Source: Fimbriimonadaceae bacterium (lineage in GTDB: Bacteria; Armatimonadota; Fimbriimonadia; Fimbriimonadales; Fimbriimonadaceae). From it: a stretch of DNA of 64,000 nucleotides. Within the stretch, counting starts at the first letter, position 1; every line of letters starts with the position of its first letter. The notes below the pieces were generated by a model that made no database searches, was not told the DNA's origin, and worked only from the letters and a program-made list of their open reading frames with translations. The stretch is from NCBI GenBank assembly GCA_019638795.1, contig JAHBTB010000006.1, positions 1 to 64,000 on the forward strand. The letters run 5' to 3'. A program made the translations under genes and the position numbers. Positions 53,997-61,047 of the stretch are shown here, one piece after another.

Positions 53997-54317
53997 TCAG
54001 CGGACGCCAGGGCCGCTCGCGGGCGGCCCCCCCGGGGCTGCCCCGGCACCTCGGCTAGGCACCATGTAGCTAAACGCCTTGCGGGCGTTGTCTTCCGTGC
54101 CGACGAGTTTGACAACCTCGGCCTTGTCCGTCGGACTCAGGGCGTCGAAATTGCCGTTGCACTTGTCGAAGTAGGTCCGGAGTTTGGTGCCGTTGTCGGC
54201 GCGGGCCTTCTCCTGGGCCGGAGACTCGGCCGGAGGGACTTTATCATCGCAACCGACCAAGGTAAGCCCGCTCAGCACCAAGGCGGCGGCAGTGACGGCG
54301 ATAGCCAGGTTCTTCAT
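53997..54317 (-). CDS. small putative lipoprotein
   Basis: 106 residues. The signal peptide with lipobox is MKNLAIAVTAAALVLSGLTL then VGCDDK. The mature part is short and charged (LRTYFDKCNGNFDALSPTDK), ending in a Gly/Pro-rich tail. ATG 54317 is used because it opens the signal peptide. It lies 61 bases after the prepilin-like gene on the same strand and may be co-transcribed with it. No family recognised. Confidence 0.6.
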   Translation of the reverse strand: MKNLAIAVTAAALVLSGLTLVGCDDKVPPAESPAQEKARADNGTKLRTYFDKCNGNFDALSPTDKAEVVKLVGTEDNARKAFSYMVPSRGAGAAPGGPPASGPGVR

Positions 54318-54377
54318 AGATCGTGTTCGTGTCTTGGGCCGCACCCCGACCAGAGGCGGGGCGCGGCCCGGTGTGCC

Positions 54378-55259
54378 TTACTTGAACTCGTTCGGCAAGG
54401 TCTGGCAGTACTGCTCGACCGCGCCGGCCATCCAACCTTGGCCCGTCGCGTTGATTTCGTCGATCGAGAAGTTCCAGAAGGTCTTGTAGGCGGGGTCGGT
54501 GACCGTCACGGTGCCACCCGGTGCGGTGACGGACATCCACGGGCCGCACATCGACGAGTAGCTCGTCCGCTTGGCATGGCCGTCGAGGTAGGCGACGTTC
54601 ATCGCCTTTCCACCGTACTTGCCGCCGTTGCCGTTGTTCCATCCGCCGCCGGTCACCGGGGCGATGCCCGCGCCGAGCCACGAGGTGTCGTCGTCGACCG
54701 GCGTGTGCCAGACGGCGAACGGGCCAAGGTCGGCGAAGAGGTTGCTGGCTTCGGCGATGTCACCGGTGGACGCCGGGGCGTCCACCGCGCTCAGGCTGAG
54801 GCCGTGGCCGTCCCAATACCCGCCGTTACCGCGGGCGCCGAAGAGGTTGACCCAGTCGTAGCCGCGGCGGTACCGCTTGAGGTTGCCGATCGGCGCCGAG
54901 GTCACGGGGCAGATCACGTTGCGGATCGCTTGGTCGGAGAAGCCCTCGTAGTAGCGGGCGAGCGGGTTGACAGGATCTGTGAAGATCTCGGAGCTCTTGG
55001 CATAGGGGTCGGTCAGTTGACGGTAGCTCATGCACGTGCTGTCGTCGATCTGCTGGCGTCCCATGCGGGTGTCGTCGTAGTCAGCGTAGTAGAGCTGGTT
55101 GCTGACCGCCAACTGCTTGACGTTGGACAGACCCGCGGCAGTCTTCGCTGACATCTTCGCCTGGGCGAAGACGGGGAACAGGATGGCCGCCAGGATCGCG
55201 ATGATCGCGATGACCACCAGCAGCTCAATGAGGGTAAAGGCTCGTTTCTTTCGTTTCAT
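54378..55259 (-). CDS. prepilin-type cleavage/methylation protein with H-X9-DG-like C-terminus
   Basis: 293 residues from ATG 55259: MKRKKRAFTLIELLVVIAII, the type IV prepilin signal with cleavage before the Phe of AFTLIE and methylation, then a long hydrophobic helix (ILAAILFPVFAQAK). The C-terminal part has MNVAYLDGHAKRTSYSSMC, the DUF1559-like H-X9-DG region common in Planctomycetes and Armatimonadota. Probably a pseudopilin of a type II/IV-like system. No pilin assembly genes are near. Confidence 0.88.
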   Translation of the reverse strand: MKRKKRAFTLIELLVVIAIIAILAAILFPVFAQAKMSAKTAAGLSNVKQLAVSNQLYYADYDDTRMGRQQIDDSTCMSYRQLTDPYAKSSEIFTDPVNPLARYYEGFSDQAIRNVICPVTSAPIGNLKRYRRGYDWVNLFGARGNGGYWDGHGLSLSAVDAPASTGDIAEASNLFADLGPFAVWHTPVDDDTSWLGAGIAPVTGGGWNNGNGGKYGGKAMNVAYLDGHAKRTSYSSMCGPWMSVTAPGGTVTVTDPAYKTFWNFSIDEINATGQGWMAGAVEQYCQTLPNEFK

Positions 55260-55593
55260 CGATATCCCACCGTTGGAATGAGGCGGGGCGTCTGTGCCGT
55301 CGCCGGTACGTCTACCGCCACCTGGCCGCAGCCATCGAGGCGTGCGCAAGCCAACTGGTCGCATTATATCATAGGTTGCTAGATTTCGCAAGAAGAAATG
55401 TTGAAAACTGTGTCGTTTGACGACGCATGATCACTCGATAAGAGTTCAATCTACAGGCAAAGCAAAGATCCGATCAAGAGCCGAATATTCGGCCCGGTAC
55501 ATCACTGTGACATGACTCTCATCTTGTCAATGAGAGATATTGTATATATCTATCTGGAAAAGGCTTCTTCGTCTGCTTTCTCCATTGGTCTTT
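55260..55593. other. AT-rich intergenic region upstream of the prepilin-like gene
   Basis: 334 bases without a gene. It contains a perfect 14-bp palindrome GCCGAATATTCGGC (55480-55493) and a 7-bp stem CTCTCAT/ATGAGAG with a 7-nt loop (55516-55536), neither followed by a T run. It is much more AT-rich than its surroundings, so it probably holds the prepilin promoter and the end of the halogenase transcript. No open frame of coding character seen. Confidence 0.4.
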
Positions 55594-57336
55594 TTATGTG
55601 CTCTTGGCGACTTCTTTACTCATCCGGACGGGGTTGTCAAGATCAATGTGCCAGTGCATGTTTTTGAACTCAGTGTCCCGCGGAAAGAGCGGTAGGCTTG
55701 GATCATAAGAGGGGACGACCCAGCCCGAATGGATGAGAGCCTCCAACGCGACGGTCACCTGTCCCAAGATGAACTTCTGGAAATGCTGGTTGTCGGGATT
55801 GAGGCTTGCGACGCGCCTGATCTCGGCGCCGATCTCAGGGAGCTTCTGATACTTTTGCAGCACATCATGGATCAAGATGTACGGGCCTTCGAGAGGGAAC
55901 ATCCGGCCGTTGCGGAAATAAGCTTGATAGCGTCGGACTTCGCCCTCCACATAACGCGCACGCTCGATGATCTCGGACTCGTCTAGAGCGAGAGTGAACA
56001 CATTGTTCGTGCTCAATGGGTCGGTGACGTCCAGGGGCGAGAGGTGCTGGCCCAGGCCCTTGATCGCCGAGACAGAGTACGTCGCCCGGCCGGCGGTGAG
56101 GTCGTCGTCGATGAACCCGCCCTGGGCCAGCCACGCCCAAGCTTTGTCCGGGGCCAAGTCCAGGCCGTTCATCTCCGCGACCTCCTTGGTGAAGTCCTGG
56201 AGGTCTTTGAACTGGGCGTTGGCCGAGTACCAGTAGTCGGCGAACCGGATGTGGTTGCGCACGCGGTTGAACTGGAGCCGTTCGTACTCGTTCTTGAGCC
56301 ACGTGGGGTCCTCTTGCCCGCGTTCCAACTCAAGGATCGTGAAAGCGGCCTCCCGGCCCGCCGCGTGGGTGATGGTCAGGCCCGCCGACAGGATCGGGTC
56401 GGCAAAGCCCGCCGACTCGCCCACCAAGAACCAATTCTCCCCATAGAGGCGTCGGGCCAAAAACGACCAGTCCTTCGTGGTGGTGAACTTGCCTTCGCTC
56501 ACCGCGTCGCGCATCAGGGCGGCGATGCGGTCCTCCATGGCCAAGGCCTCGGTGTAGAGTTCTTCTGGACGTTTGCCGGACTTCTTGTAGTACTCGGCCG
56601 GCATGACCAGTCCGACGCTGGTGCGCGTCGGGCCGAGGGGGATGAACCACAGCCATCCGAATCCGACGCTCATGATTTGGATGCGCGTGCCGCCGACCCC
56701 GATCGACTCAGCCCAGTCGGCGTTCTGCCAGTAATCCCAGACCGCAATGTTCTGCAGGCTGGTGGGGACCTCGACGGGCACATCGAGCGCGCGACGGAGC
56801 ACCCCGACATGCCCTGAGGCGTCGATGTAGTGCTTGGCCTCGACGGTCTCGCCTGAGTCCAGGGTCAGGTGGGTGACGCGGTCGCCCTCGCGGGCGACCT
56901 TGGTCACCTTCGTCTCCTCATAGACGGTGCACCCCAACTCGGCCGCGTGGTCGAGAAGGATCTTGTCGTACACCGCGCGGTCGACCTGGAATGCGGTGAA
57001 CTGGCGTGGCCCTTCGAAGTCTCCGGGCCGCTGCATGTCGGCCAAGCGGGCGGGCGGGATAAAGTCAAAGTCCCACAGCTCGTTGGTGACGCCCCACTTA
57101 TAGGTCGCCCCCACCTTCACGGGGAAGTCTGCCGCCTCGACCTTGTGCCAGCAACCCATCTCGGCAAGGAAGTGGGACGTGAGCGGCAACTGGCTTTCGC
57201 CGACATGGTCGCGGGGGAACTTGTCCCGCTCGAAGATGCGGACGTCCAGCCCTTGGCCATACCGCCTCAGGAACGAGCCCAAAGTGCTACCGCCCGGCCC
57301 GCCTCCGATGATCGCCACGTCGCAACGCATCTTCAC
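55594..57336 (-). CDS. FAD-dependent monooxygenase, flavin halogenase-like
   Basis: 580 residues. The FAD motif is CDVAIIGGGPGGSTLGSFLR, then RDHVGESQLPLT and, near residue 228, GWLWFIPLGPTRTSVGLV, which corresponds to the WxWxIP motif that distinguishes flavin halogenases, here as WLWFIP. GESAGFADPILSAGLTITHA is the second FAD contact. Members halogenate phenolic, pyrrole or indole groups, or act as reductase-like relatives; the substrate cannot be told and halogenation is unproven. GTG 57336 has TAGAAT 5 nt upstream, and a LacI-type palindrome sits directly before that. Confidence 0.75.
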   Translation of the reverse strand: MKMRCDVAIIGGGPGGSTLGSFLRRYGQGLDVRIFERDKFPRDHVGESQLPLTSHFLAEMGCWHKVEAADFPVKVGATYKWGVTNELWDFDFIPPARLADMQRPGDFEGPRQFTAFQVDRAVYDKILLDHAAELGCTVYEETKVTKVAREGDRVTHLTLDSGETVEAKHYIDASGHVGVLRRALDVPVEVPTSLQNIAVWDYWQNADWAESIGVGGTRIQIMSVGFGWLWFIPLGPTRTSVGLVMPAEYYKKSGKRPEELYTEALAMEDRIAALMRDAVSEGKFTTTKDWSFLARRLYGENWFLVGESAGFADPILSAGLTITHAAGREAAFTILELERGQEDPTWLKNEYERLQFNRVRNHIRFADYWYSANAQFKDLQDFTKEVAEMNGLDLAPDKAWAWLAQGGFIDDDLTAGRATYSVSAIKGLGQHLSPLDVTDPLSTNNVFTLALDESEIIERARYVEGEVRRYQAYFRNGRMFPLEGPYILIHDVLQKYQKLPEIGAEIRRVASLNPDNQHFQKFILGQVTVALEALIHSGWVVPSYDPSLPLFPRDTEFKNMHWHIDLDNPVRMSKEVAKST

Positions 57337-57341
57337 GCTGG

Positions 57342-57347
57342 ATTCTA
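57342..57347 (-). promoter_or_regulatory. -10 element (TAGAAT) for the halogenase-like gene
   Basis: TAGAAT on the minus strand ends 5 nt before GTG 57336, or 11 nt before the ATG two codons on. The palindrome TGAACCGGTTCA begins 6 bases further upstream, in the spacer where a bound repressor would block RNA polymerase. Confidence 0.5.
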
Positions 57348-57352
57348 TCCGC

Positions 57353-57423
57353 TGAACCGGTTCACCACAAGAGCTTTTTTGCAGATTCGCCGCAATGGGC
57401 GAGAACTTTGCTGAATCGGTTCA
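57353..57423. promoter_or_regulatory. pair of LacI-type operator palindromes
   Basis: TGAACCGGTTCA at 57353-57364 is a perfect 12-bp palindrome with central CG. TGAATCGGTTCA at 57412-57423 differs in one position. They are 59 bases apart in the gap between the divergent halogenase-like and GHL10-like genes. LacI/GalR-family repressors bind such even palindromes with central CG. No regulator gene of this family is in the window. Confidence 0.6.
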
Positions 57424-57504
57424 CCAAGTCGGGCTCTGCCAGTGGGCCAGAAGTCCCATTGGCGCAACCCGGCCACCTGAGACCTGGACCAGGTAAACCG
57501 GGCT

Positions 57505-58977
57505 GTGTCCTTAGTCACGTTCGCCGTGATGGCAATCCTGCCATGGCGCAGCCTGCCCCAGTTCACCGAGCCGAGCTTTGCCTATCGCGCCGCGCGCGAC
57601 CGCGGGTTGCAGGGCAGGCTCCTCTGGATCGACGGCACCGCGAACATCGACTTGGTCGCCGACCGGGCAAGGCTCGGCCGGTTTATGAAGCAGGCGAAGG
57701 ACGTCGGGTTCAACACCGTGGTGTACGACATCAAGCCGATCGTCGGCCGCACGCTCTACCCGTCAGAGTTCGCCGCCCCCCTGACCTCTTGGAAGGGCGT
57801 CGCGTTCCCTCCCGGATACAACCCGCTGGCCGAGGTCTTGCAGGCCGGGCACCACGTCGGCCTCAATGTCTGCGTCTCGATGAACGCGTTCAGTGAAGGG
57901 CACAGTTACGCGAAGGCGGCGGTGGGGAAGCCTGACAGCCCGTTTGGTGACGCCGGGCCGGGTTACCGGTGGCCGGAACGACAGGCCGTCGTCCTTCGGT
58001 CAGAACCCGATCCGATGGACCCGACGAAGGCGGCCTACACGTTCCGGCCCTCGGGCGCCGTGCAAAACCAGATCCCCCTGATGATGAACCCGTTTGACCA
58101 ATTGGTCAGAGACCATGTCCTGGTCATGGTCGACGAGGTGGCCCGGGGCTACCCCATCGACGGCCTGCTCTTCGACGACCGGCTCCGGTTCACCGGCCTT
58201 GACGGCGGGTTCAGCCCCGAGGCAAGGTCCGCCCTCGAGAGAAAGGTCGGTGCGGTGGCATGGCCGGAGGACGTCTACACCGTCCGCCACCAACCGGACA
58301 AGTCGACGACGATCATCCCCGGCAAGTACTTCCAGGACTGGCTGGTGGTCCGGGCCGAGGCGGTCAAGTCGTTTGTGACACGCGCCCGGGCCGTGCTCAA
58401 GCGAGCCCGTCCCGCTGCCTCCTTCGGCGTCTACGCCGGCTCGTCATACGGGCACTACTACAAGTTCGGCAGCAATTACGGGTCGCCCGACAACCGGGCG
58501 GGATTCCCGTTCCTCACCAGCGACTACCGTAAGGCCGGGTTCGCCCCGTGGCTCGACCTCCTCGTCACCGGGTGCTACTATCCGACCCCCACCGTCGCCT
58601 CGGCCCAGGCCAGCGGCAAGCCGGTCGGCTTCACCGTGGAGGCGGGGGCCCTCGTCAGTGTCGCCGCCGCCTATGACGCCACGTGGACGTACGCAGGCGT
58701 CATGCTGACGGACTACACCGACCGTCCCGCCGCACTGGAGACCGCTCTCCGCGCGGCGACGACGAACAGCGAAGGCGTCATGGTCTTCGACGCTTCCCAC
58801 GGGATCGACAAGTTTTGGCCGGTCTTCGCCAAGGTCTTCGCCAAGCCAGCCAAGGCGCCCCACAACGTGCCCGGACTCATCGACAAAGTCCGCCGGGCCC
58901 GCTTGAGGGCCGACCGGCGCGGTGAGGCGGTCTGGAACTTCCCCATGCTGGACGGCCAGGCCGACGCCGGGTTCTAA
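57505..58977 (+). CDS. GHL10-like putative glycoside hydrolase
   Basis: 490 residues. Body: RGLQGRLLWIDGTANIDLVA, then FMKQAKDVGFNTVVYDIKPI and GLNVCVSMNAFSEGH, with the likely catalytic region PIDGLLFDDRLRF. This is the pattern of the GHL10/DUF187 TIM-barrel group (AK..GFNTVV.D.K). GTG 57505 is the first start; a short hydrophobic N-terminus (VTFAVMAILPW) may be a signal. It is divergent from the halogenase-like gene, and the two LacI-type palindromes between them fit carbohydrate-responsive control. Glycan target unknown. Confidence 0.7.
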   Translation: MSLVTFAVMAILPWRSLPQFTEPSFAYRAARDRGLQGRLLWIDGTANIDLVADRARLGRFMKQAKDVGFNTVVYDIKPIVGRTLYPSEFAAPLTSWKGVAFPPGYNPLAEVLQAGHHVGLNVCVSMNAFSEGHSYAKAAVGKPDSPFGDAGPGYRWPERQAVVLRSEPDPMDPTKAAYTFRPSGAVQNQIPLMMNPFDQLVRDHVLVMVDEVARGYPIDGLLFDDRLRFTGLDGGFSPEARSALERKVGAVAWPEDVYTVRHQPDKSTTIIPGKYFQDWLVVRAEAVKSFVTRARAVLKRARPAASFGVYAGSSYGHYYKFGSNYGSPDNRAGFPFLTSDYRKAGFAPWLDLLVTGCYYPTPTVASAQASGKPVGFTVEAGALVSVAAAYDATWTYAGVMLTDYTDRPAALETALRAATTNSEGVMVFDASHGIDKFWPVFAKVFAKPAKAPHNVPGLIDKVRRARLRADRRGEAVWNFPMLDGQADAGF

Positions 58978-59017
58978 AGGCCGACGCGCAGTGCGCAGAA
59001 GGCACGTCTGGAACGGT

Positions 59018-59860
59018 ATGGGCTCGCGCCCCCTCGAACCGACGATCGAGACCGACTTCACCGGCCGGCTCGACTACAGCGGATACCTCTGTCTCGACAG
59101 TCTTCTCGGTGCGCAGAAGACCTTGAGCGACCCGCCCCATCACGACGAGTTGCTCTTCATCATCCAGCACCAGACGAGCGAACTCTGGCTCAAGCTTGTC
59201 GTGCACGAACTCCGCGCCGCCCGACGGTCGGTCCAGGAGGACGACCTTGGGCCAAGCTTCAAGGTCCTTGCCCGGGTGAAACAAGTCCAGCGGATGCTCT
59301 TTGAGCAGTGGGCCGTCCTGGAGACGTTGACCCCCACCGAGTACGCCCAGTTCCGGGGTGTCTTGGGTCGGGCGAGCGGCTTCCAGTCGCACCAGTACCG
59401 GCTCGTCGAGTTCCTGCTCGGTAACAAGGACGCCGACGCTGTCAGCGTCTTCCGACACCGGCCCGAGGTCTACGACGAGCTCCAGACGGAGTTGAATTCG
59501 CCCAGCGTCTACGACGAGTTTCTGCGCCTCCTCGCCCGTCGGGGGTTTGACTTGCCTGCGGAGGCCGTGGACCGGGACTGGAGCCGACCGTACGCCTCGC
59601 ATCCTGCCGTCGTGGCCGCCTTCAAGCGGGTGTACGACGACCCCGCCCGACATTGGGACGCCTACGAAATGGCGGAGAAGCTGGTCGACGTCGAGGAGTA
59701 CTTCCTTCTTTGGCGGTACCGGCACCTGAAGACGGTGGAGCGGATCATCGGGTTCAAGATGGGCACGGGAGGGAGTTCGGGGGCCCGGTTCCTGGAGCAA
59801 GCCCTCAAGATCCGCCTGTTCCCCGAGCTGTGGGACGTGCGGACGGAGATCGGTCGTTGA
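59018..59860 (+). CDS. kynA: tryptophan 2,3-dioxygenase
   Basis: 280 residues, haem enzyme opening the indole ring of tryptophan to N-formylkynurenine. LDYSGYLCLDSLLGAQKTLS is the N-terminal signature. DELLFIIQHQTSELWLKLVV contains the substrate-contacting Phe and the His-Gln-x-x-Glu region. GFQSHQYRLVEFLLGNKDA and YFLLWRYRHLKTVERIIGFK with GTGGSSG close the haem/substrate site. ATG 59018 gives the standard start; the open frame extends upstream into the GHL10 gene. kynU follows 17 bases on. No formamidase gene is seen here. Confidence 0.95.
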   Translation: MGSRPLEPTIETDFTGRLDYSGYLCLDSLLGAQKTLSDPPHHDELLFIIQHQTSELWLKLVVHELRAARRSVQEDDLGPSFKVLARVKQVQRMLFEQWAVLETLTPTEYAQFRGVLGRASGFQSHQYRLVEFLLGNKDADAVSVFRHRPEVYDELQTELNSPSVYDEFLRLLARRGFDLPAEAVDRDWSRPYASHPAVVAAFKRVYDDPARHWDAYEMAEKLVDVEEYFLLWRYRHLKTVERIIGFKMGTGGSSGARFLEQALKIRLFPELWDVRTEIGR

Positions 59861-59877
59861 ACCTGCCCCCGGGGCCG

Positions 59878-61047
59878 ATGGACGCCGCGTATGTCGAGCG
59901 CCACGTCAACCCCCTGTTCACGAGGGTGCTGGCCCGAAACGAGGTGTATCTGGCCAACCACTCCCTGGGCCGTCCCCTCGACCGCACCGAGGCGGACGTC
60001 CAGGAGGGTGTCGCCTCCTGGTACGGGGAGATGGACTCCGCGTGGGACGCGTGGATGGCGGAGTCGGACTCGTGGCGGGCTGGCGTGGCCGACTTGGTCG
60101 GGCTCCCTTCTGGGGACGCGGTCGTCCCGCGGGCCAGCTGCGGCCAGGCCCTTCGGGCGGTGTTGAACTCGTTCCCCACCGGACGCCGGGTCAATGTCGT
60201 CACCACCGACGTCGAGTTCGACAGCATCGACTTTGTCCTCCGGTCGTACCACGAGGCCGGTCGGGCCGACGTGCGGTTCGTGGCCTCCGGTCGCCAGGGT
60301 GGGGCCCCGTGGGTGGACGTCGGACAATTGGTCGAGGCGGTCACGCCAGGCACCGACCTCGTCGTCGTCAGCGCGGTGGTCTTCATGACCGGCCAGGTCG
60401 TCTCCGGCTTGGACACCCTCGTCCATGAATGCCAAGCGCGGGGGACCCAGGTGCTCGTCGACGCCTACCATGCGGTCGGCGTCTTGCCCTATGCCGTCGG
60501 CCAGGCCGACTTTGCCATGGGTGGATCCTACAAGTACCTACGGGGAGGCCCCGGTTGTTGCTGGCTGGCCGTGCACCCACGCCACCTGGCGTCAGGCGGC
60601 CCCCGGACCCTGGACACGGGATGGTTTGCCAAGGCCGACACGTTCGGTTACGCCCGGCCCGAGAAGACGGAGCGCAAGCCGGGCGGGGACGGATGGCTGG
60701 AGTCGACCCCAGCCGTATTGCCCGTGTTTCAGGCACGGGCAGGGCTGGAGTTCACCCGGCAGATCGGTCCCGACCGGTTGAGAGATCACGGTCTTAGGAT
60801 GTCCCGTCGGTTGCGGGCCAAGTTTCTGGATGCCGGCATTCCCGTCTTGGGCGGGGAGGACGCCGACCAGTTCGGAGCATTTGTCTGTGTGGGCCACCCT
60901 GCGCCGTCGTCGGCAGCCCAGGAGATGAGGGAGAACGGGGTCAACACCGACGCTCGCGGGGCGTTCGTCCGGTTCGGGCCCGACATCCTCACGACCGACG
61001 ACGAACTCGACGTCGCGGTGCGCGTGGCGGCGAAAGTCTGGAGGTAA
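59878..61047 (+). CDS. kynU: kynureninase
   Basis: 389-residue PLP enzyme cleaving kynurenine or 3-hydroxykynurenine to (hydroxy)anthranilate and alanine. ANHSLGRPLDRTEADVQEGV is the N-terminal signature. TTDVEFDSIDFVLRSYHEAG follows; VDAYHAVGVLPYAVGQADFA and MGGSYKYLRGGPGCCWLAVH hold the PLP lysine in SYKYL. ATG 59878 is used; a TTG at 59857 overlapping the kynA stop is an alternative. With kynA it forms a tryptophan-catabolic pair. A strong hairpin follows. Confidence 0.93.
   Translation: MDAAYVERHVNPLFTRVLARNEVYLANHSLGRPLDRTEADVQEGVASWYGEMDSAWDAWMAESDSWRAGVADLVGLPSGDAVVPRASCGQALRAVLNSFPTGRRVNVVTTDVEFDSIDFVLRSYHEAGRADVRFVASGRQGGAPWVDVGQLVEAVTPGTDLVVVSAVVFMTGQVVSGLDTLVHECQARGTQVLVDAYHAVGVLPYAVGQADFAMGGSYKYLRGGPGCCWLAVHPRHLASGGPRTLDTGWFAKADTFGYARPEKTERKPGGDGWLESTPAVLPVFQARAGLEFTRQIGPDRLRDHGLRMSRRLRAKFLDAGIPVLGGEDADQFGAFVCVGHPAPSSAAQEMRENGVNTDARGAFVRFGPDILTTDDELDVAVRVAAKVWR

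What the first reader, a model, noticed from the sequence alone, without database searches (positions are those of the whole stretch)
57337..57504. Two LacI-type palindromes between a halogenase-like gene and a GHL10 glycosidase
Seen: perfect TGAACCGGTTCA and a one-mismatch copy TGAATCGGTTCA 59 bases apart; the perfect one directly abuts the TAGAAT element. Inference: a sugar-responsive repressor controls both divergent genes, tying a flavin halogenase-like enzyme to carbohydrate use, which is unexpected.
Basis: partly seen in the sequence, partly recalled or inferred. Interest (0 to 1): 0.5.

Follow-up and report, generated by a model that had tools for sequence, protein, structure and literature searches.

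The report
Sugar-repressor operators before a halogenase-like gene
Two short palindromes in front of a halogenase-like gene of an uncultured Armatimonadota bacterium look like the binding sites of a particular LacI-type sugar repressor, so an enzyme type usually tied to natural-product chemistry appears to be switched on together with glucan-degrading genes.

Summary
The palindromes are real (57353-57364 perfect, 57412-57423 one mismatch; 59 bp apart). Two such copies in one 168-bp gap are not chance, although the 12-mer is not enriched genome-wide. The first fills the 17-bp spacer of a TTGTGG-N17-TAGAAT promoter of the halogenase gene and is conserved, with that promoter, in the same-genus orthologue. 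The regulator can be named: a LacI-family gene elsewhere in this genome (G000:C3:146252-147301). Upstream of its orthologues in other genera lie the same palindromes (11 of 31 within 2 mismatches; 0 of 38 other LacI genes). A weight matrix built only from those foreign sites ranks the two window palindromes first and second in the 64 kb. In Fimbriimonas sp. MAG_BO249 the halogenase orthologue, this LacI gene and a PF10091 glucanase-like gene sit together, with TGAACCGGTTCA and TGAATCGGTTCA in the halogenase and glucanase promoters. Other predicted targets: a GH94 phosphorylase beside a sugar ABC transporter, a solute-binding protein, a second halogenase. GH94 and PF10091 relatives suggest a beta-1,2-glucan-type sugar (inference). 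Regulation of the GHL10 gene is not shown: copy 2 is absent in the same-genus relative. Whether the enzyme halogenates is untested. No experiment exists.

The parts
57353..57364 (.). Operator 1, TGAACCGGTTCA (perfect palindrome); 20-bp matrix window 57349-57368
   Evidence: conserved in same-genus orthologue promoter; matrix rank 2 of all positions of the 64 kb
57412..57423 (.). Operator 2, TGAATCGGTTCA; 20-bp matrix window 57408-57427 TTGCTGAATCGGTTCACCAA
   Evidence: matrix rank 1; not conserved in G001
57342..57370 (-). Promoter reading for the halogenase gene: TTGTGG (57365-57370), 17-bp spacer holding operator 1, TAGAAT (57342-57347)
   Evidence: Sequence; same arrangement, TTGTGG-N17-TAAAAT, in G001
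55594..57336 (-). Flavin-dependent-halogenase-like protein (PF04820), likely start ATG at 57330
   Evidence: motifs GGGPGGS, FPVKVGA, WLWFIP, FADPILSAG
57505..58977 (+). GHL10 (PF02638) + DUF4985 protein, divergent neighbour; regulation by these operators not shown
   Evidence: synteny kept in G001
54378..55391 (-). Prepilin-type protein (PF07963 N-methyl motif) downstream of the halogenase, with its own promoter-like site
   Evidence: 51% identical to the prepilin at the MAG_BO249 LacI/halogenase locus
53997..54344 (-). Small lipoprotein-like ORF, relative of lipoproteins encoded beside the LacI regulator in other genomes

Best explanation
The palindromes are operators of one LacI-family sugar repressor, encoded elsewhere in the genome at G000:C3:146252-147301 (recognition-helix region GKVTVSYVLNG). 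In the absence of its sugar a dimer on operator 1 occupies the -35/-10 spacer and blocks RNA polymerase at the halogenase-like gene; operator 2, 59 bp away, adds occupancy. The sugar releases the protein and the gene is transcribed together with the rest of a small carbohydrate regulon: the LacI gene itself, a PF10091 glucanase-like gene, a GH94 phosphorylase and a sugar ABC transporter. The inducer is probably a beta-1,2-glucan fragment. Shown by sequence: the sites, their conservation, the motif shared with the regulator's own promoters, and the joint locus in MAG_BO249. Inferred: binding, repression rather than activation, the inducer, and the enzyme's reaction.
For: (1) 31 upstream regions of orthologues of this LacI: 11 hold a site within 2 mismatches of TGAACCGGTTCA (9 within 1; shuffles 0.05% within 1 and 1.1% at 2); 38 other LacI genes: 0; Fisher 5e-5. 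(2) Of 12 perfect copies in 16 genomes, 3 lie within 400 bp upstream of this LacI gene: G035, G043, G002. (3) A matrix from the 11 foreign sites scores the window palindromes 29.9 and 20.6; next best position 10.9; largest value in 20 shuffles 17.1. (4) A 25-bp block holding TTGTGG and operator 1 is identical between two species in an otherwise diverged gap. (5) MAG_BO249 (L188): halogenase orthologue (63%, better than the three other own-genome paralogues compared), this LacI (51%), PF10091 protein (47%), prepilin (51%), lipoprotein (43%) in one locus; TTGGTGAACCGGTTCATCAA before the halogenase, ACGGTGAATCGGTTCAGCGA before the PF10091 gene. (6) Other sites: GH94/ABC gap in both species, SBP gene, F5/8-type-C-domain gene and a second halogenase in G001. 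(7) In G035 the LacI gene with the perfect site lies near a GH94 gene.
Against: 20 of 31 orthologue upstreams hold no site within 2 mismatches, among them the window genome's own, whose site GCTGAAGGCGTTCAGC differs at three of the twelve central bases. Operator 2 is not conserved in G001, and the 65% orthologue L187 has no site in its promoter. Only 3 of 36 halogenase-family genes examined have a strict TGAANCGNTTCA within 250 bp upstream, all in this genus. In G061 the LacI orthologue lies 3 kb from a 59% homologue whose promoter has no site. No genome-wide enrichment of the palindrome. No expression or binding data. The 59-bp spacing is not a whole number of helical turns, so looping is not favoured.
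Confidence: 0.83

Rival explanations
1. The sites are operators, but of another regulator of similar half-site preference (a different LacI paralogue or a different family), and the likeness to the promoters of the C3 LacI gene reflects cross-regulation.
For: The own-genome site at the C3 LacI gene differs in the centre, TGAAGGCGTTCA; several LacI genes exist in both species (6 and 10 over the cut-off).
Against: None of 38 other LacI upstream regions has the motif; the LacI clade that sits beside other halogenase paralogues has a different one, CGAAWCGTTTCG; the MAG_BO249 locus links this LacI, the site and the halogenase.
Confidence: 0.1
2. The regulator controls both divergent genes, GHL10 and halogenase, by looping or by blocking two back-to-back promoters.
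For: Two operators lie in the shared gap, and operator 2, the best matrix match, lies on the GHL10 side.
Against: No promoter found for GHL10; operator 2 missing in G001 although synteny is kept.
Confidence: 0.3
3. Chance palindromes without function.
For: No genome-wide excess of the motif.
Against: Two sites in 168 bp (P about 6e-7), conservation in the promoter, independent matrix ranking, orthologous locus.
Confidence: 0.02

Closest known systems
LacI-family sugar regulons (LacI/GalR type; e.g. SuxR of Xanthomonas campestris, PMC1790865, passages seen)
   Same: HTH plus periplasmic-binding-protein-like domain, short palindromic operators at promoters, own-promoter sites, carbohydrate enzymes and transporters as targets
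   Different: A flavin-halogenase-like gene with prepilin and small-lipoprotein genes takes part; I noticed no TonB-dependent receptor gene beside the site, but did not search for one
Flavin-dependent halogenases of the CmlS / PltA / CndH kind (PDB 3i3l, 5dbj, 3e1t; that 3e1t is CndH is recalled)
   Same: FAD motif, conserved Lys, WxWxIP, and the Fx.Px.Sx.G signature in the window copy
   Different: Controlled with sugar genes; many paralogues; the Ser of the last signature is Ala in the same-genus orthologue and others; activity unknown
Beta-1,2-glucan enzymes: GH94 domain of cyclic beta-1,2-glucan synthase (8rf9) and endo-beta-1,2-glucanase (5gzh)
   Same: Best or good solved-structure matches of the GH94 and PF10091 regulon members
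   Different: Specificity of the members here not tested

Membership tests
LacI-family regulator (C3 gene) | LacI HTH (PF00356) and sugar-binding domain (PF13377) | tested here: met
   PF00356 62.3 bits over cut-off 27; PF13377 127.1 bits
LacI-type operator of that regulator | Same palindrome in the regulator's own promoters | tested here: met
   11 of 31 orthologues against 0 of 38 other LacI genes
LacI-type operator of that regulator | Central CG in an even palindrome (that this is typical of the family is recalled) | tested here: met
   TGAAC-CG-GTTCA; the own-genome LacI site has GC at its centre, so the rule is not strict here
LacI-type operator of that regulator | Physical binding and release by a sugar | not testable with these tools
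   needs EMSA or footprinting
Flavin-dependent halogenase | GxGxxG, WxWxIP and Fx.Px.Sx.G (motifs from PMC7336383 and PMC12871659, passages) | tested here: met
   Window copy: GGGPGGS at 11, WLWFIP at 228, FADPILSAG at 311. WxWxIP in 36 of 36 family members, FxxPxxSxG at this strict spacing in 14 of 36
Flavin-dependent halogenase | Halogenation of a substrate | not testable with these tools
   needs assay
GHL10 | PF02638 over the curated cut-off | tested here: met
   62.3 bits, cut-off 27.9

The most novel reading that the evidence does not exclude
In Fimbriimonadaceae a large family of true flavin halogenases belongs to sugar catabolism: each paralogue is switched by its own LacI or GntR regulator, travels with a prepilin and a small lipoprotein, and modifies something met together with a given glycan, which gives halogenases a role outside secondary metabolism.
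Probability: 0.3. Interest if true: 0.75.

Novelty: new member of a known kind. Interest (0 to 1): 0.5.

Why it matters
The regulon names the condition (probably a beta-1,2-glucan or its fragments) under which a halogenase-like enzyme of unknown substrate would be made, and so gives a place to look for that substrate. It also gives a regulator-motif pair for a little-studied phylum, and a cassette (LacI or GntR, prepilin, lipoprotein, halogenase) that may mark carbohydrate loci there.

Tried and rejected
Global enrichment of the palindrome as a test: uninformative, 18 sites against 34 for the reversed pattern; the relaxed extended pattern was also below its control. A LacI gene adjacent to the site in the own genome: none. 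LacI C1:160779, beside a halogenase paralogue, as the regulator: rejected, since its promoter sites are GCGAATCGTTTCGC-like. A shared operon of halogenase, prepilin and lipoprotein: doubtful, the prepilin gene has its own promoter-like site. The halogenase upstream regions of 36 family members mostly lack the site. A first regex version for LacI starts failed, a second missed 8 of 30 loci, and tblastn replaced it.

Papers: full-text searches for halogenase with LacI, TonB-dependent receptors, carbohydrate utilisation or glycoside hydrolases gave no paper on point (most papers listed by 35 and 46 hold the word halogenase zero times, and one search listed 25 of 150). The association of tryptophan-halogenase genes with TonB receptor loci in Proteobacteria is recalled by me; I found no paper for it here. 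Searches (beta-1,2-glucan, LacI; Armatimonadota, halogenase) likewise gave nothing on point; one search listed 10 of 46 papers. Papers opened, passages only: PMC5945002, PMC7336383, PMC12871659, PMC1790865.

LacI rows: 168, with three below the family cut-off left out. The loci are related by descent, so the P value is optimistic. The 400-bp limit behind the upstream count was chosen after seeing the hits.

Full report
WHAT IS THERE. The window lies on contig 6 of a 2.70-Mb genome. Relatives found by protein search are mostly Armatimonadota, several named Fimbriimonadaceae or Fimbriimonas. The gap 57337-57504 separates a flavin-halogenase-like gene (minus strand; PF04820 115 bits, nearest solved structures halogenases, E down to 2e-47) from a GHL10/DUF4985 gene (plus strand). 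TGAACCGGTTCA is at 57353-57364 and TGAATCGGTTCA at 57412-57423. On the minus strand the first copy fills the 17 bases between TTGTGG and TAGAAT; five bases separate it from TAGAAT. The strict promoter scan did not list this pair.

IS IT CHANCE? The 12-mer is not enriched in the genome as a whole: 18 sites at <=1 mismatch against 34 for the reversed pattern, 2 perfect copies against 0, one of them inside an ORF. At that density two sites in 168 bp have P about 6e-7. The second copy is not there.

WHICH REGULATOR? The own genome has six LacI HTH genes. The one at C3:146252-147301 has matches at E <= 1e-50 in 35 of 101 relatives searched. I took 300 bp upstream of 31 of these genes (30, one from G061): the best match to TGAACCGGTTCA has 0 mismatches in 1, 1 in 8, 2 in 2, and 3 or more in 20; shuffles of the same stretches reach <=1 in 0.05% and 2 in 1.1%. 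Of 38 other LacI genes none reaches 2. G016 has exactly the window's second version, G035 the first. Two further perfect copies lie a little farther upstream, in G043 (15 bp before a lipoprotein gene that precedes the LacI gene) and G002. A symmetrised 20-base matrix from the 11 foreign sites puts 57408-57427 first (29.9) and 57349-57368 second (20.6) in the 64 kb; the third position scores 10.9, and shuffle maxima averaged 11.6 with a largest value of 17.1.

THE JOINT LOCUS. The strongest single observation came from a record not used for the matrix. In Fimbriimonas sp. MAG_BO249 (L188) the 63% orthologue of the window halogenase is followed, after one short ORF, by the LacI gene (51% identical to the C3 protein) and a convergent PF10091 gene (47% identical to the gene next to the C3 LacI). 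TTGGTGAACCGGTTCATCAA lies in the halogenase promoter and ACGGTGAATCGGTTCAGCGA in the PF10091 promoter, each a short way upstream of a TATAAT. Divergent from the halogenase are a prepilin and a lipoprotein, 51% and 43% identical to those downstream of the window halogenase.

THE REGULON. The site recurs between a GH94 gene and a sugar ABC ATPase gene in both species (TGAACCGGTTCT), and in G001 before an ABC solute-binding protein gene, before a large ORF with an F5/8-type-C domain, and 15 bp before a second halogenase paralogue. In G035 the LacI gene stands near a GH94 gene. The GH94 protein is nearest to the GH94 part of cyclic beta-1,2-glucan synthase (2e-120), and the PF10091 protein matches, among others, an endo-beta-1,2-glucanase (2e-31). 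A beta-1,2-glucan fragment as inducer is therefore my best guess, not a result.

A WIDER PATTERN. The halogenase family has several copies in many of these genomes. 8 of 53 loci have a LacI gene within 5 kb, against 1.4 expected. Several loci run regulator (LacI or GntR-like), prepilin, often a small lipoprotein, halogenase (GntR is my reading of the sequence). One LacI clade found beside such paralogues has its own motif, CGAAWCGTTTCG. Linking halogenase-like enzymes to carbohydrate control is thus probably not confined to this gene.

WHAT IS NOT SHOWN. Binding, direction of control, inducer, control of GHL10, and the enzyme's chemistry. The window copy has all three halogenase signatures, but the Ser of the last one is Ala in the same-genus orthologue. 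Against the reading: only 3 of 36 family members carry the strict site upstream, the 65% orthologue L187 lacks it, and 20 of 31 LacI orthologues lack a close match in 300 bp.

Noticed in passing
window 59015-61047 (+): A tryptophan 2,3-dioxygenase gene and a kynureninase-like class-V aminotransferase gene follow the GHL10 gene, in the same order in G001.
   Followed up: no
L114, L124, L127, L130-L133, L137, L142: Repeated cassette of regulator (LacI or GntR-like), prepilin-type protein, often a small lipoprotein, and halogenase-like gene; it may mark carbohydrate loci in this family.
   Followed up: partly
L021 1300-1500 (G000:C1 about 160.6-160.8 kb): A second LacI gene, divergent from a halogenase paralogue, with GCGAATCGTTTCGC-like operators in the gap and one before the next prepilin gene; GH97 and GH16 genes nearby.
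   Followed up: partly
window 55479-55494: Near-perfect palindrome GGCCGAATATTCGGCT (minus strand) between the halogenase and the prepilin gene.
   Followed up: no
L196, L199, L200 (Phycisphaerales/Phycisphaeraceae), L201 (labelled Tropicimonas): 47-50% identical halogenase-like proteins in records outside Armatimonadota, so transfer between phyla or mis-binning is possible.
   Followed up: no
window 57330-57347 and L188 4985-5002: The -10 hexamers lie only about 6 to 11 bases before the start codons, which suggests nearly leaderless transcripts.
   Followed up: no
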